From Desulfobacca acetoxidans DSM 11109 (GTDB lineage: Bacteria; Desulfobacterota; Desulfobaccia; Desulfobaccales; Desulfobaccaceae), in NCBI RefSeq assembly GCF_000195295.1, contig NC_015388.1, positions 2,666,001 to 2,730,000 on the forward strand: a DNA stretch of 64,000 nt. Reading direction: 5' to 3'. The stretch's first letter is position 1, and each line of letters opens with the position of its first letter. A program made the position numbers and the translations under genes. Shown here one piece after another: positions 1,455 to 45,456 of this stretch. The notes under the pieces were generated by a model. The model searched no databases. It had not been told where the DNA came from and saw only the letters and a program-made list of their open reading frames with translations.

Positions 1455-2726
1455 TTGACCAGTCATCGGATCATCGTCGGCGACTGCCGCCGGATGCCGG
1501 AATTGGCGGATGCCACAGTGCACCTGGTGGTAACCTCGCCACCTTACTGGCAGTTGAAGGACTATGGGCCGAAACAGCAGATCGGCTACGATGACTCCTA
1601 TGAGGACTACATCAACCATCTCAACCTGGTCTGGCAGGAGTGTTGGCGGGTGCTGCACCCCGGCTGCCGGTTGTGTGTCAATATCGGCGACCAGTTCGCC
1701 CGGGCGGCCTACTATGGCCGGTATAAGATCATGCCCATCCGCACCGAGATCATCAAGTTCTGCGAAACCATGGGCTTCGATTACATGGGGGCGATCATCT
1801 GGCAGAAGGTCACCACCTGCAACACCAGCGGCGGGGCCACCATCATGGGATCGTTTCCCTTCCCCCGCAACGGTATGCTGAAGCTGGACTATGAGTTTAT
1901 TTTGATCTTCAAAAAGCCCGGAGCGACACCGCCGGCCTCGGCTGAAGTAAAAGAGCGGTCCCGAATGAGCCAGGAGGAATGGAAAACCTATTTCCAGGGC
2001 CACTGGAACTTCCCCGGCGAAAAGCAGTCTAAACACCTGGCCATGTTCCCGGAAGAGCTGCCCCGGCGTCTTATAAAGATGTTTACCTTTGTGGGGGAGA
2101 CCGTCCTGGACCCATTCTTGGGAAGCGGCACCACCAGCCTGACGGCCAGGAATCTGGGCCGGAATTCGGTGGGCTATGAGATCAACGAGGAATTTCTGCC
2201 GATCATTCAGGAGAAATTGGGGCTGCAGCACGGAGCCCTTTTTGGTTCCGATGAGGTTGTACTAACCCAACGGAAAAAGGCTCCTACCGACCATATGACT
2301 CGCATCGCCGCCTTGCCGTATGTATTCCATGATCCGATACGCTTTGATAAAAAAAATAACCCGAAAGAAAGGACTTATGGTTCAAAGATTGATTCGACTA
2401 GCAGAAAGAAAGAAGATTATTCTCGAGTACGGGAGATTTTATCTCCTACAAGACTGCTTTTGAATAATGGCCAATATATATCTTTACTCGGAATCAAGGA
2501 AATTCCAGGAAAAAATGGAGATGCCATAGAATTTCTCAAAAAATTGACTAAGGGTAGTAAAGTGTTTTTCCGGAAGGACGAAAAAGTATCTGAAGATTCT
2601 GATCAGGTTTATTTATACCTTACCAATAAGACATTTATTAATGCTCACCTAATAAAAAATAAATTGGTTGATGTCGATACTGAAAGTAATTATAAATACA
2701 AAGAGAGGTTTTTAAAATACCTGTAA
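1455..2726 (+). CDS. DNA methyltransferase fused to an SNase-like domain
   Basis: Residues 1-260 form an amino-methyltransferase of the permuted (beta-type) order: catalytic Thr-Ser-Pro-Pro-Tyr-Trp at 27-32 and the SAM-binding Asp-Pro-Phe-Leu-Gly-Ser-Gly-Thr-Thr at 219-227. The SPPY form is usual for N4-cytosine enzymes. After a linker, residues about 330-423 resemble the staphylococcal nuclease fold (Leu-Leu-Gly-Ile after a basic strand, an Ala-x-x-Phe-Leu-Lys helix, a Val-Tyr-Leu-Tyr-Leu strand, then Phe-Ile-Asn-Ala-x-Leu-Ile), but positions expected for the catalytic Arg-Glu-Arg set are not preserved, so I expect no nuclease activity. Translation starts at TTG; an in-frame TGA lies just upstream. 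From about 2340 the DNA becomes clearly AT-rich, suggesting a joined origin. No restriction gene is adjacent. The TAA stop lies in a repeat-element end. Confidence 0.75.
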   Translation: MTSHRIIVGDCRRMPELADATVHLVVTSPPYWQLKDYGPKQQIGYDDSYEDYINHLNLVWQECWRVLHPGCRLCVNIGDQFARAAYYGRYKIMPIRTEIIKFCETMGFDYMGAIIWQKVTTCNTSGGATIMGSFPFPRNGMLKLDYEFILIFKKPGATPPASAEVKERSRMSQEEWKTYFQGHWNFPGEKQSKHLAMFPEELPRRLIKMFTFVGETVLDPFLGSGTTSLTARNLGRNSVGYEINEEFLPIIQEKLGLQHGALFGSDEVVLTQRKKAPTDHMTRIAALPYVFHDPIRFDKKNNPKERTYGSKIDSTSRKKEDYSRVREILSPTRLLLNNGQYISLLGIKEIPGKNGDAIEFLKKLTKGSKVFFRKDEKVSEDSDQVYLYLTNKTFINAHLIKNKLVDVDTESNYKYKERFLKYL

Positions 2727-2970
2727 CAACTCAGTCGCTTGGGGCGAATACAAGATTCGCTCCAAGGGATGGATCTGCCGGTGCTGCAGTGTTGTTGTAG
2801 GACGGAAAAGCGGAGCGCATCCCGCCTTTTGGAATGCTCCGACACCAATTTTCATGGTTTACGGGTAACCCACGGGTAGTGGCAATCATCGAGAAATCAA
2901 GGTTTTTAAACGTAGGATGGGCACGCCCACCATTCCTTGCTCTATTCTCTCAGATAGCTGAAGTATACCG
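2722..2970 (-). repeat. MITE-like element, inverted diverged copy (family M2)
   Basis: Read on the minus strand from 2970, this begins CGGTATACTTCAGCTATCTG, matching the left end of the elements at 15163, 23494 and 45272, and continues with the related segment as far as 2911. The palindromic core GGGGCGAATACAAGATTCG lies at 2742-2760. The other end, CTGTAACAACTCAG at 2722-2735, is a diverged form of the inverted terminal repeat. The middle (about 2765-2910) is not shared. A 61-codon frame inside (2834-3019) is not a gene: its coding potential is repeat sequence. Confidence 0.65.
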
Positions 2971-15162: not shown

Positions 15163-15316
15163 CGTAATACTTCAGCTATCTGAGATAATAGATCAGGAAC
15201 ATGGTTGGCGGTGCCCACCCTACAGCACCGTAGCATCGACAGACCCGTCTGATAGGGGCGAATCTTGTGTTCGCCCCAAACAACTGATCTGTAGGGGCGA
15301 ATCTTGTATTCGACCC
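15163..15316 (+). repeat. M2-type repeat element with two palindromes
   Basis: Begins with CGTAATACTTCAG and follows the 45272 element for about 120 bases (including GAGATAATAGATCAGGAACA). It then has one core palindrome (15254-15277) and a second related copy at 15291-15316. The right terminal repeat seen at 45404 is absent, so this copy is altered at its end. Confidence 0.7.
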
Positions 15317-23493: not shown

Positions 23494-23679
23494 CGTAATA
23501 CTTCAGCTATCTGAGATAATAGATCAGGAGCATGGTTGGCGGTGCCCACTCTACAGCACCAAAGCATCGACAGACCCATCTGTTGAATTGGGTAACTGAG
23601 GTGGTGCAGCCGCGACAGCACCCTACAGCACTAAAGCATTGACAGACCCGTCTGTAGGGGCGAATCTTGTATTCGCCCC
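23494..23679 (+). repeat. M2-type repeat element with internal duplication
   Basis: Starts CGTAATACTTCAGCTATCTG like the copies at 15163 and 45272. The CCTACAGCAC...AAAGCAT(C/T)GACAGACCC segment occurs twice (about 23550-23580 and 23620-23652), so the unit has an internal duplication. It ends with the core palindrome GTAGGGGCGAATCTTGTATT plus CGCCCC at 23654-23679. Confidence 0.7.
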
Positions 23680-23761
23680 AAGCAACTCTCGCCCCCGGGC
23701 CGGAAAAAGGACTTTCCCGATGGAAACGAGCAGGCAGGATCTCTTCGCGCCACTCTGAAAC

Positions 23762-24739: not shown

Positions 24740-24825
24740 ACTACCTTACGCTTTGCCAGGCGGGAGGCGCTTTCCTTTCCCTCCCGGCCTGATCACGGTT
24801 TTTACGGGCCACCGGGCCATTTAAT

Positions 24826-24979
24826 ACTAATTTGATGTCAAATATAGAGTAATTGAAAAACTATCGGTGGCACCGGCGTCCCGCCTGTGCCATATTGAAC
24901 AGGCCGAAAGCCTGTTCCACCTTATTTGATCGACCTTTAAGTCATTTGTTCTAAACTCTAATTTTGATGCTAAATTAGT
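24826..24979. repeat. MITE-like element M1, uninterrupted copy
   Basis: 154 bases bounded by imperfect inverted ends: ACTAATTTGATGTCAAATAT at the left, and the complement of ACTAATTTAGCATCAAAATT at the right. It contains two palindromes, one GGCGTCCCGCC-type and one GAACAGGCCGAAAGCCTGTTC-type. The reverse complement matches 45147-45440 except for a 133-base insertion there. The right end abuts the hypE stop codon (24980-24982). Confidence 0.8.
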
Positions 24980-25978
24980 CTAACAGATACGCGGCAGCAA
25001 CTCTCCGGTTGGCATTTCCAGCAATCGGGCGGCGCCATAGGGCGTACGGCAGTGCACCCGCCCGGCTGGCGCCGGTAGCACCTCCCCGATGAGCTGTGCC
25101 TCCCGGCCATAACGGCAGTCCCGCACTATTCCCAGGGCGCGGTTCGCATCCGAGGCCGCCACGATAACCACCATCTTTCCTTCATTGGCCACGGCAAAGG
25201 GATCAAAGCCGAGAACCTCGCAGGCCGCAGCCACCTCCGGACGCACCGGCACCCGCGACTCTTCGATCTCAATGGCGACCTGCGACTGCCGGGCAATTTC
25301 GTTGAGCGTCGCCGCTATCCCCCCTCGGGTGGGATCGCGTAAGGCATGCACCTCCACCTCAGCCTCGAGCAGACGCAGGACAATCTCAGTGAGGGGCGCC
25401 ACGTCGCTGCGAATATTGTCGCTTCCCAACAGGTTCTCGCGGGCCAACATCACGGCAATACCGTGGTCGCCCAATGAGCCGGTCACTATGATCTTATCTC
25501 CCGGTTTGGCCGCGGCGCCGGACAACCCCGGTCGAAGCACCGCGCCTAAACCGGTAGTAGTAATAAAGACCGCATCGGCGGCGCGGCGCGGCGCCACCTT
25601 GGTGTCTCCGGTAACAATGTTTACTTCGGCCTCGGCCGCAGTCTGGTGCATGGAATCGGTAATGGCCTGCAAGCTTTCCAGTGGAAAGCCCTCTTCCAGG
25701 ATAAAGGCGGCGGCCAGGACCGCTGGTCTGGCCCCGGCGGTGAGCAGGTCATTCACCGTCCCCGCTACTGCCAGCCGCCCGATATCCCCCCCTGGAAAAA
25801 AGATAGGGGAGACCACATACGCGTCCGTGGTTAAAGCCAGATTGCCGCCCGCGAGTTCTATGATGGCGCTATCGTCCCGGCTGACCCCGGAGGGACCGTA
25901 GCTGCGCTGGAAAACCTGCTCAATAAGGGCAAACATCTCCTGCCCCCCCGCCCCATGACTGAGAAGGATGCGCTTCAT
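24980..25978 (-). CDS. hypE: Hydrogenase maturation protein HypE
   Basis: Dehydrates the carbamoyl group on its own C-terminal cysteine to a thiocyanate, supplying CN ligands for the NiFe centre of hydrogenases. The 332-residue PurM-like protein has Leu-Ser-His-Gly-Ala-Gly-Gly at its start, Thr-Asp-Ala-Tyr-Val-Val near residue 55, Gly-Asp-Thr-Lys-Val and the required terminal Pro-Arg-Ile-Cys. The start at 25978 gives the canonical N-terminus; 16 extra codons upstream (26026) are not conserved. HypA-D, HypF and hydrogenase genes are not in the window. Confidence 0.95.
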   Translation of the reverse strand: MKRILLSHGAGGQEMFALIEQVFQRSYGPSGVSRDDSAIIELAGGNLALTTDAYVVSPIFFPGGDIGRLAVAGTVNDLLTAGARPAVLAAAFILEEGFPLESLQAITDSMHQTAAEAEVNIVTGDTKVAPRRAADAVFITTTGLGAVLRPGLSGAAAKPGDKIIVTGSLGDHGIAVMLARENLLGSDNIRSDVAPLTEIVLRLLEAEVEVHALRDPTRGGIAATLNEIARQSQVAIEIEESRVPVRPEVAAACEVLGFDPFAVANEGKMVVIVAASDANRALGIVRDCRYGREAQLIGEVLPAPAGRVHCRTPYGAARLLEMPTGELLPRIC

Positions 25979-35907: not shown

Positions 35908-37758
35908 ATGAACCGCCCTGCTGCCTTCGGTCCCGACCACCCCCATCCTCTCTCCACCATGAAGACCGAACTGGTCTGGGAGGGCAAATACGATGCATAC
36001 GGCAATCGCCGCCCCATCAAATTACCTGCTTCCCCCCTGCCCTTGCAGCGCATTGAGACCATCGACGAACCCCGGGACCGCAGCCGCTCCCAGGGGCTGT
36101 TATGGGAACCCGAGTCGGCCCACCGCGATGACTTCCGCAACCTCCTCATCTGGGGAGATAATAAACTCGCCCTGGCCGCCCTGCTGGAACAGTTCCGGGG
36201 CAAAATTGACCTGATTTACATCGACCCACCTTTCGATGTGGGGGCGGATTTCACCATGCAGGTGCAGCTCGGCGGAGAAGGCGAAGCATTACAGAAAGAA
36301 CAATCGATTCTCGAGGCGGTAGCCTACCGAGACACCTGGGGCAAGGGAACGGATTCTTATCTGCATATGATGTATGAGCGGCTGGTATTAATGAAAGATC
36401 TTTTAAGTGAGAGTGGTAATATATTTGTGCATTGTGACTGGAGAGTAAATAGCTACATCCGTTTACTGCTTGATGACATCTTAAGTGGGGATAACCATCA
36501 AAACGAACTTATTTGGATTTACTCGAGAATGGCCTCAAAAAATCAGCGTAACTTTAATAATACACATCAAACTATTTTTTGGTATCGGAAAGGACCAGGG
36601 TTTACTTTCAATGTTGACCAAGTAAGAACTGAATATGCCGAAAGCAGTAAAAAAAGAGCAGGTTATGCAAAAAAAGGTGTTGGAAGTGGTTTATTAAAAG
36701 AGGGTAGTGTGTGTGAGCTTCATGAAAAAGGTAAGTTTCCTGATGATTGGATGAGTATTCCCTTCGAGAGAAATGCAACCTACCAAACAGAAAAACCTGA
36801 AAATCTGCTCGATGTTATTATTAAGGCTGCTTCCAACGAAGGCGACCTCGTCGCCGACTTCTTCTGCGGCTCCGGCACCACCATGGCCGTCGCTGAAAAA
36901 CTAGGCCGCCGCTGGATTGGCGTGGACCTGGGCCGCTACGCCATCCACGTCAGCCGCAAACGCCTCATCCAGGTGCAGCGGGAACTCCACACCGCCGGCA
37001 AACCCTACCGCTCCTTCGATGTCTACAACCTGGGCCGCTACGAGCGCCAGTGGTGGCAGCTTGACCGGCTCAAGGGGGCCGACAGCGAACACCGGCGCCT
37101 TGTCCTGCAGTTTTACCAGGCCGCCCCCTTGGACAACCCGCCCCATCCGCTCCTGCACGGCAAGAAACATGGCGCCTTCGTGCATGTGGACCAGATAGAC
37201 AGCATCTTTGCCTTTGATGAGCTCAAGACGGCGGCCGAGGCGGCCAGATCGGCGGGGGGCCGGGAACTGCACTGCCTGGCCTGGGAATTTGAGATGGAGT
37301 TGGCCGCCAAAAAACAGGCCATCGAAGCGGAAACCGGCCTCACCGTCCGGCTGAAGTACATCCCCCGGGAGATCATGGAACCCAACCGCACCGCCTGCCA
37401 GTTCTTCGAAGCCGGCTACCTCGAGGCCAGGGCCATCAAAAAGGGCAAAAAAGTGGATGTGGAGCTGCTCCGCTTCACTCCGGCCCTGGCCGAGGCGCCA
37501 GAGGCGGAAATGTCGGCCCTGCGGGAACGGGCCATAAAATCCCCGTTTGATTTCATTGACTTCTGGGCCGTGGACTTCGACTGGCGGGACAACAAACCGT
37601 TTGAACATCACTGGCAGGATTTCCGCACCCGCAAGGACCGCTCCCTCAAGACCCGAACCGATCTGGGCTGGGAATATGACCACCAAGGCCCCCATCGGAT
37701 CTGCATCAAGGTGATCGACGTCTTTGGGGTGGACACCACCACAATAATTGCGGTGTAG
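35908..37758 (+). CDS. mod: Type III-like modification methyltransferase (Mod)
   Basis: About 616 residues. The catalytic motif Asp-Pro-Pro-Phe (106-109) precedes the SAM motif Phe-Phe-Cys-Gly-Ser-Gly-Thr-Thr (318-325), the beta-class N6-adenine order seen in type III Mod proteins. About 36380-36835, between the two motifs, is strikingly AT-rich against GC-rich flanks and probably encodes an exchanged target-recognition region. The start is uncertain: 35908 has GTGGAG before it; 35959 gives the family-like [10 protein letters not shown]; a TTG at 35812 is unlikely. The TAG stop is formed by the first bases of a repeat element. The Res partner lies 1.2 kb downstream beyond the RAYT cassette. 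Confidence 0.85.
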
Positions 37759-37912
37759 GGGCGAATCTTGTATTCGCCCCGCCAAAGAGGTTATTCATAC
37801 CGCGTAGGGGCGAATCTTGTATTCGCCCCGCCAATAATAGATTTTCCACATCCTGTTGGGGCGAACCACATATTCACCCGGCGTGATGGGCGAACACAAG
37901 GTTCGCCCCTAC
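37755..37912 (+). repeat. Left 158-bp direct repeat flanking the RAYT gene
   Basis: Contains two core palindromes (37755-37780 and 37804-37829), the spacer CAAAGAGGTTATTCATACCG, TTTTCCACATCCTGTTGGGG and a third arm ending GGTTCGCCCCTAC. It matches 38679-38836 base for base with about seven differences and the same length. Its second to fourth bases form the mod stop codon. Confidence 0.88.
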
Positions 37913-37941
37913 GGGGAGAGGATAGGTGCAAGGACAATAAA

Positions 37942-38682
37942 ATGAAACAGCGGCGTTCCATGCGCGTGGCGGGATATGATTACAGTCAACCGGGCGCATA
38001 TTTTATTACCATCTGTATTCAACATCGCCTCTGTCTGTTAGGCGACATCATTGAAGGGGTGATGAATCTAAATGAAGCAGGAGAAATGGTCCGCCATGCC
38101 TGGGAAGATTTGCCCCTAAGATTTCCCTTTATGACACCGGACATTTCGGTGGTCATGCCCAATCATTTTCATTGCATTTTTTTATTTACCGGGTTGGGTA
38201 GGACCGAACCCCATATTCCCCCCGACAATAACAGATTTTCCACATCCCGTAGGGGCGAACCCCATATTCCCCCCGACGTGATGGGCGAACACAAGGTTCG
38301 CCCCTACAACGGAGATCTCTTTTGCTGTAGGGGCGAATCTTGTATTCGCCCTGACGAGAAGGTTCGCCCCGACGGGGGTTGGCCAGGAGGGACAGCAAAC
38401 GATTCTGTTGGACGCATAATACAAACATTCAAATCCATCACGACTTTGGCTTATATTTCCGGGGTCAAGAATCGTGGATGGCCTCCGTTTTCGAAAAGAT
38501 TCTGGCAAAGAAATTATTATGACCATGTGGTACGTGATGAGGCAGCATTGAATCGAATCCGAGAGTACGTTGTGTCAAACCCGTTGAGATGGCATCTTGA
38601 TCGTGAAAATCCGCAACCGCAGGGACAGGATGATTTCGACATATGGTTGAATCAATTTCCCCGATCATCCATGCCTCTATAG
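37942..38682 (+). CDS. REP-associated tyrosine transposase (RAYT, Y1 family)
   Basis: 246 residues of the IS200-like Y1 transposase superfamily. Tyr-Asp-Tyr-Ser-Gln-Pro-Gly-Ala-Tyr-Phe-Ile-Thr at the N-terminus; metal-binding His75-Phe-His77 in Met-Pro-Asn-His-Phe-His; C-terminal Asn-Tyr-Tyr-Asp-His-Val-Val (Tyr192/Tyr193 are nucleophile candidates), then Tyr-Val-Val-Ser-Asn-Pro. RAYTs cut and join single-stranded DNA at REP palindromes and are normally single-copy domesticated genes. Between the HFH motif and the C-terminal domain, about 62 residues (88-150) are translated from inserted palindrome repeats. The stop codon comes from the right flanking repeat. It is inserted between mod and res. 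Confidence 0.88.
   Translation: MKQRRSMRVAGYDYSQPGAYFITICIQHRLCLLGDIIEGVMNLNEAGEMVRHAWEDLPLRFPFMTPDISVVMPNHFHCIFLFTGLGRTEPHIPPDNNRFSTSRRGEPHIPPDVMGEHKVRPYNGDLFCCRGESCIRPDEKVRPDGGWPGGTANDSVGRIIQTFKSITTLAYISGVKNRGWPPFSKRFWQRNYYDHVVRDEAALNRIREYVVSNPLRWHLDRENPQPQGQDDFDIWLNQFPRSSMPL
38206..38390 (+). repeat. Palindrome repeats inside the RAYT coding region
   Basis: Successive diverged palindrome units (for example TTTTCCACATCCCGTAGGGG, GGTTCGCCCCTACAACGGAG and GGGGCGAATCTTGTATTCGC) fill this part of the gene without breaking the frame. The translated product is Arg/Pro/Gly-rich and unlike other RAYTs. Confidence 0.85.
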
Positions 38683-38836
38683 GGGCGAATCTTGTATTCG
38701 CCCCGGCAAAGAGGTTATTCATACCGCGTAGGGGCAAATCTCGTATTCCCCCCGCCAATAACAGATTATCCACATCCTGTTGGGGCGAACCACATATTCA
38801 CCCGGCGTGATGGGCGAACACAAGGTTCGCCCCTAC
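38679..38836 (+). repeat. Right 158-bp direct repeat flanking the RAYT gene
   Basis: Same length and order as 37755-37912, with small differences (G/A at base 1, C/G in the spacer, changed bases in the second palindrome). TAG at 38680-38682 is the RAYT stop codon. Confidence 0.88.
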
Positions 38837-38854
38837 AACGGAGATCTCTTTTGC

Positions 38855-38932
38855 TGTAGGGGCGAATCTTGTATTCGCCCCGCCAATAACAGATTTTCCA
38901 CATCCCGTAGGGGCGAATCTTGTATTCGCCCC
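38855..38932 (+). repeat. Two further core palindromes before res
   Basis: GTAGGGGCGAATCTTGTATT plus CGCCCC occurs at 38855-38880 and again at 38908-38932, joined by CAATAACAGATTTTCCACAT. The cluster ends about 50 bases before the res start. Confidence 0.85.
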
Positions 38933-44965: not shown

Positions 44966-45146
44966 GGGGGGAATCTAGACTTAGCGGCGAACCGGAATAA
45001 GTTCGGCGCCGGCGACCGATAATCATGGACTTATGATCAAAAACCTGATAGTAAGACACTAGATGGATCAGCCGACCTGGACACTCGGCTCTTAAGAGAG
45101 AAATTCGGCGCCGGATTGTCGATCTAAAATCTGCTGAACAACTTAT

Positions 45147-45440
45147 ACTAATTTAACATCAAAGTTAGAGTTTAGCACAAATGACTTAAAGATCGATTAA
45201 ATAAGGTGGAACAGGCTTCCAGCCTGTTCAATATTGCACAGGCGGGACGCCTGTGCCACCGATAGTTTTTTCGTAATACTTCAGCTATCTGAGATAATAA
45301 ATCAGGAACATGATTGACGGTGCCCACCCTACAGCACCGTAGCATCGACAGACCCGTCTGTAGGGGCGAATCTTGTATTCGCCCCAAACAACTGAAGTGT
45401 TACGTTTTTTCAATTACTCTATATTTGACATCAAATTAGT
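45147..45440. repeat. MITE-like element M1, copy interrupted by M2
   Basis: The reverse complement of 24826-24979 matches along its whole length with scattered changes, except that 133 bases (45272-45404) are inserted in a T-run. The ends read ACTAATTTAACATCAAAGTT and ...TTGACATCAAATTAGT. TA occurs at both outer borders (45146-45147, 45440-45441), compatible with a TA target duplication. Confidence 0.82.
45272..45404 (+). repeat. M2 element with terminal inverted repeats and target duplication
   Basis: 133 bases bounded by CGTAATACTTCAG (45272-45284) and CTGAAGTGTTACG (45392-45404), inverted repeats of 13 bases with one mismatch. Six T residues flank it on each side (45266-45271, 45405-45410), while the empty site at 24856-24860 has a single run of five. 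The core palindrome lies at 45360-45385. Confidence 0.85.
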
Positions 45441-45456
45441 ATTAGGTGTCAACCGG

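What the first reader, a model, noticed from the sequence alone, without database searches (positions are those of the whole stretch)
45147..45440. Nested element with its own empty site in the same window: a readable MITE insertion
The reverse complement of 24826-24979 aligns with 45147-45440 except for 133 extra bases. That insert has 13-bp inverted ends (CGTAATACTTCAG / CTGAAGTGTTACG, one mismatch) and sits in a T-run that is six long on both sides but five long in the empty copy. This defines the ends and likely target duplication of the M2 element, and shows M1 was there first.
Basis: seen in the sequence. Interest (0 to 1): 0.8.

Follow-up and report, generated by a model that had tools for sequence, protein, structure and literature searches.

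The report
IS66-type mini-transposon nested in another
A 131-base mobile element with no genes of its own has jumped into an older small repeat in a sulfate-reducing bacterium; its ends, its 8-base target copy and its relatives show it was moved by an IS66-type transposase whose own gene survives here only as fragments, which is a tidy but ordinary case of a known kind of parasite DNA.

Summary
The nested insertion is real, but its ends and target duplication were misread. The genome is Desulfobacca acetoxidans DSM 11109 (by exact genome size). The inserted element (M2) is 131 bp, window 45273-45403, with 12-bp inverted ends GTAATACTTCAG/CTGAAGTGTTAC. It is flanked by a perfect 8-bp duplication, GTTTTTTC (45265-45272 and 45404-45411). 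The 5-versus-6 T difference is variation between M1 copies. Genome-wide, 13 of 14 young M2 copies carry an 8-bp duplication (12 exact). A second, independent M2 sits in another M1 copy, at the adjoining 8 bp. GTAA termini plus 8-bp duplications point to the IS66 family. Same-genus and same-family genomes hold an IS66 lineage with near-identical ends and exact 8-bp duplications. In D. acetoxidans only decayed fragments of that IS were found. M2 is thus an IS66-derived MITE, probably spread by a transposase that is now lost. M1 is an older MITE-like element with 3-bp TTA/TCA duplications and no partner found. This is a new member of a known kind.

The parts
45273..45403 (+). M2 element, 131 bp, IS66-type MITE (GTAATACTTCAG...CTGAAGTGTTAC)
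   Evidence: 92-96% identical copies elsewhere in the genome
45265..45272 (.). left copy of the 8-bp target duplication GTTTTTTC
45404..45411 (.). right copy of the 8-bp target duplication GTTTTTTC
45146..45441 (+). M1 element interrupted by M2 (TACTAATTT...AAATTAGTA)
   Evidence: seven near-complete M1 copies in the genome, two of them interrupted by M2, plus one partial copy
45143..45145 (.). left copy of the M1 3-bp target duplication TTA
45442..45444 (.). right copy of the M1 3-bp target duplication TTA
24825..24980 (-). uninterrupted M1 copy (the empty site), flanked by TTA on both sides (24822-24824 and 24981-24983)
15164..15287 (+). another young M2 copy, right end lost or rearranged
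23495..23687 (+). rearranged, composite M2 copy
2723..2969 (-). old, diverged M2-family copy

Best explanation
M2 is a 131-bp non-autonomous transposon (MITE) of the IS66 family, most like the single-ORF (ISBst12-like) type. It has no coding capacity. It offers a transposase the terminal sequences GTAAYACTTCAG. The transposase, supplied in trans, cuts or copies it and joins it to an often A+T-rich target with an 8-bp stagger, leaving an 8-bp direct repeat. In this locus the target was GTTTTTTC inside an older element, M1. The transposase most likely came from an IS66 lineage whose ends nearly match M2. That lineage is still present in other Desulfobacca-related genomes and was found in D. acetoxidans only as decayed pieces. 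Shown: ends, 8-bp duplication, copy number, insertion order, IS66 relics and end similarity. Inferred: mobilisation by that particular transposase, and the cut-or-copy chemistry.
For: Ends and duplication: among 14 young copies, 12 have exact 8-bp repeats and one has 7 of 8; other repeat lengths from 4 to 13 bp give at most one exact match. A second M2 lies in another M1 copy at G000 2324454-2324584, duplicating AATTATTC next to the first target, so M2 entered M1 at least twice. IS66 hallmarks: PF03050 elements in other genomes of the phylum, where both ends could be set, have GTAAYnnTTCAG ends and perfect 8-bp repeats (L105, L110, L111); ISDge4 of the ISBst12 group has an end GTAACTGCTCAGCA and an 8-bp repeat (PMC12898284). 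Specific lineage: the 22-nt M2 left terminus, with up to 3 mismatches, occurs in only 4 of 59 genomes, all of the window's own family. There it marks IS66 ends GTAACTCTTCAGTCATCTGAGA (left) and GTAACACTTCAGTTAACTGAGA (right). Three contig-edge pairs of left and right ends share exact 8-mers AAATAATT, ATGGAACG and ATTTATTC. IS66 coding sequence lies next to these ends. Own genome: relics at 2267343-2268209 (zf-IS66, the only one in the genome), 888990-889365 and 2646756-2646872, two of them keeping the left end. M2 (older-copy sequence) agrees with the L135 left end at 13 of 16 positions beyond the shared 12-mer (3 of 200,000 shuffles) and with relic 2646756 at 12 of 16 (31 of 200,000).
Against: No intact transposase with these ends was found in D. 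acetoxidans, so mobilisation in this cell is not demonstrable. Beyond about 28 bp on the left and 15 bp on the right, M2 has no visible similarity to the IS, so it may not be a plain internal-deletion product. One young copy (1162524) and several old ones lack a clear duplication. The sister-genome IS copies are fragmented or frameshifted, and their duplications were read across contig edges.
Confidence: 0.9

Rival explanations
1. M2 is a MITE: 133 bp with 13-bp ends and a duplicated T-run as target.
For: The 13-bp inverted ends and the T-runs are present at this one locus.
Against: Other copies end at GTAA...TTAC and duplicate unrelated 8-mers, most without T-runs; the outer C/G pair is not conserved among copies.
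Confidence: 0.03
2. M2 is moved by a transposase of another family that also makes 8-bp duplications (for example IS256, ISL3 or IS1) and resembles IS66 ends by convergence.
For: Several IS families make 8-bp duplications (general knowledge); no intact IS66 was found in the genome.
Against: The ends match IS66 ends of the same bacterial family over about 22-28 bp, and that word is absent from the other 55 of 59 genomes searched.
Confidence: 0.05
3. M2 did not insert; the copy at 24826-24979 lost it by precise deletion.
For: Either direction gives the same pairwise difference.
Against: Five M1 copies lack M2 at both positions, two carry it at different positions, and each insertion has its own duplication. 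Precise loss from all the others is much less likely.
Confidence: 0.02

Closest known systems
IS66 family, ISBst12 group (single-ORF elements; for example ISDge4 of Deinococcus geothermalis, PMC12898284)
   Same: Termini of the form GTAAY..TCAG, 8-bp direct repeats, imperfect short inverted ends
   Different: M2 has no transposase gene and is 131 bp instead of about 1.4-2 kb
IS66-lineage insertion sequence of Desulfobacca sp. MAGs Tomsk_58_1633 (DYEV01000016.1) and STE_27 (JAQVHY010000089.1, JAQVHY010000171.1)
   Same: Left end GTAACTCTTCAGTCATCTGAGA or GTAACTCTTCAGCCTTCTGAGAGAAT, right end GTAACACTTCAGTTAACTGAGA, 8-bp repeats
   Different: Encodes an IS66 transposase (PF03050), here broken or cut by contig ends; the interior is unrelated to M2
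Bacterial MITEs in general (for example MITEPsy1 and MITEPsy2 of Pseudomonas syringae, PMC3189936)
   Same: Short, non-coding, multicopy, inverted ends; mobilised in trans
   Different: Those are assigned tentatively to IS5 and, by end similarity, to a Tn3-family element; M2 belongs with IS66

Membership tests
MITE (non-autonomous DNA transposon) | short, terminal inverted repeats, no transposase gene, multicopy | tested here: met
   131 bp, 12-bp ends with one mismatch, no substantial reading frame, tens of copies
MITE (non-autonomous DNA transposon) | target site duplication and a matching empty site | tested here: met
   8-bp repeats in 13 of 14 young copies; empty sites in uninterrupted M1 copies
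IS66 family | termini beginning GTAA | tested here: met
   GTAATAC...GTGTTAC; compared with IS66 elements whose ends were found here
IS66 family | 8-bp direct repeats | tested here: met
   same for IS66 elements in relatives
IS66 family | ends shared with an element that encodes an IS66 transposase | tested here: met
   same-family IS66 copies and own-genome relics share the ends
IS66 family | encodes DDE_Tnp_IS66 transposase | tested here: not met
   M2 has no gene; hence it is filed as an IS66-derived MITE, not as an IS66 insertion sequence
IS66 family | transposed by IS66 transposase in trans | not testable with these tools
   needs an experiment

The most novel reading that the evidence does not exclude
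M2 went on spreading after its own IS66 partner had decayed, cross-mobilised by a different or passing IS66 transposase that recognises little more than GTAAYnnTTCAG, so that only the short terminal word is needed for mobility.
Probability: 0.15. Interest if true: 0.4.

Novelty: new member of a known kind. Interest (0 to 1): 0.27.

Why it matters
It gives exact ends, target rule and probable parent for an abundant small repeat of this genome. I found no described IS66-derived MITE in the paper library searched, so it is a useful worked example of how IS66-type elements, whose transposition is little studied, can leave multicopy gene-free descendants. It changes no general picture.

Tried and rejected
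PF03050 in the window's own genome: no match; the relics appeared only with a DNA query from a sister genome. Exact 31-nt M2 pattern in genome contigs: none, though records of the window's own genome may be left out there. A paired-end search for an autonomous element with both M2 ends up to 6 kb apart found only short copies and chance pairings; the hit list was cut, so weakly matching ends could be missed. The 2.6-kb pair at 312247-314868 proved to be two separate M2-family copies. Search for a partner of M1 by its ends: only M1 copies at 0-1 mismatches. The T-run target idea was rejected by other copies.

Full report
WHERE. The window is bases 2,666,001-2,730,000 of a closed genome of 3,282,536 bp. 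That is exactly the published size of Desulfobacca acetoxidans DSM 11109 (PMC3156406), so the identification rests on genome size; contigs of its close relatives (G003, G005) correspond in length to records titled Desulfobacca sp..

OBSERVATION. The reverse complement of 24826-24979 and the stretch 45147-45440 align end to end except for one insertion. The insertion lies between GATAGTTTTTTC and GTTTTTTCAATTAC. Read as a transposon, it is 131 bp, 45273-45403, GTAATACTTCAG...CTGAAGTGTTAC, with the 8-bp word GTTTTTTC on both sides. The empty copy has five T where the target had six. Two other M1 copies (G000 2324585 and 793839) also have six T, so this is variation between M1 copies.

GENOME-WIDE TEST. 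A search with the insert finds many copies: about fifteen young ones at 92-96% identity and an older layer near 80%. After removing strand duplicates and one segmental duplicate, 31 copies with two recognisable ends were compared. Thirteen have exact 8-bp repeats and nineteen have seven or more matches. Among the 14 young copies, 12 are exact and one is 7 of 8. The total of 197 matching positions compares with a shuffled mean of 75 and a maximum of 113 in 20,000 shuffles. No other repeat length from 4 to 13 bp gives more than one exact match. The duplicated words are mostly A+T-rich but otherwise varied. Young 131-bp copies differ from each other at 6.8 positions on average, so the burst is not very recent. 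Related elements of 119, 243, 264 and 304 bp have similar ends.

ORDER OF EVENTS. Seven near-complete M1 copies and a partial one are in the genome. M2 interrupts two of them, here and at 2324454-2324584. The two targets, GTTTTTTC and AATTATTC, are neighbours within M1. M1 was therefore there first and M2 entered it twice independently.

TRANSPOSASE. GTAA ends with 8-bp repeats suggested IS66. (a) IS66 elements of the phylum were collected with PF03050; where both ends could be set, several have GTAAYnnTTCAG ends and perfect 8-bp repeats (L105, L110, L111). (b) Published ISDge4 (ISBst12 group of IS66) has ends GTGACTACTCAGCA/GTAACTGCTCAGCA and an 8-bp repeat (PMC12898284). (c) The 22-nt left terminus of M2, with up to three mismatches, occurs in 4 of 59 genomes, all of the window's own family; the reversed control pattern gives no match. 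In G003 and G005 most of these matches are the two ends of an IS66 lineage, many at contig edges as expected of a multicopy IS. Matching left-type and right-type edges gives three pairs with identical 8-mers, AAATAATT, ATGGAACG and ATTTATTC. The adjoining coding sequence, where present, is PF03050. (d) A sister-genome copy used as query uncovered relics in D. acetoxidans itself: 2267343-2268209 (with the only zf-IS66 domain in the genome), 888990-889365 and 2646756-2646872. The last keeps the left end GTAACTCTTCAGTCATCTGAGA, identical over 22 nt to that of G003. (e) Beyond the 12-mer shared widely in IS66, M2 agrees with the left ends of this lineage at 10-13 of 16 positions, against 2-7 for other IS66 elements.

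MECHANISM. Shown: boundaries, 8-bp duplication, insertion order, absence of a gene in M2, decayed IS66 of matching ends in the same genome. Inferred: an IS66 transposase acted in trans on M2 ends. The strand folds into a hairpin-rich structure (z = -6.3), which follows partly from the inverted ends and an internal palindrome; I draw no function from it.

M1. M1 has ends TACTAATTT...AAATTAGTA and is flanked by TTA or TCA on both sides in most copies. It is a separate MITE-like element whose family I could not settle.

VERDICT. The nested insertion is real and can now be read to the base. It is an IS66-derived MITE in an older MITE-like element: a new member of a known kind, of modest interest.

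Noticed in passing
window 45146-45441 and 24825-24980: M1 has about 25-bp imperfect inverted ends and 3-bp TTA/TCA duplications in most copies; no autonomous partner with these ends was found in the genome.
   Followed up: partly
window 37755-38931, also inside M2 at about 45360-45386: The palindrome GGGGCGAATCTTGTATTCGCCCC is free-standing and clustered here and is common, without the rest of M2, in genomes of another family of the same order. It looks like an independent REP-like repeat that M2 has picked up or shares.
   Followed up: no
G000 1166850 and 1176836 (L004, L007): Two M2 copies about 10 kb apart share the same flanks and the same duplication TCATTTCC, so this is a segmental duplication and not two insertions.
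   Followed up: partly
L153, near G000 888990: An old M2-family copy adjoins the IS66 relic, so the MITE family and the dead transposase lie side by side.
   Followed up: no
G000 1848320-1848623 (L087): A 304-bp element with ends GTAACAGTTCAG and a 7-of-8 duplication GGACATGA/GAACATGA may be a MITE of another IS66 lineage.
   Followed up: no
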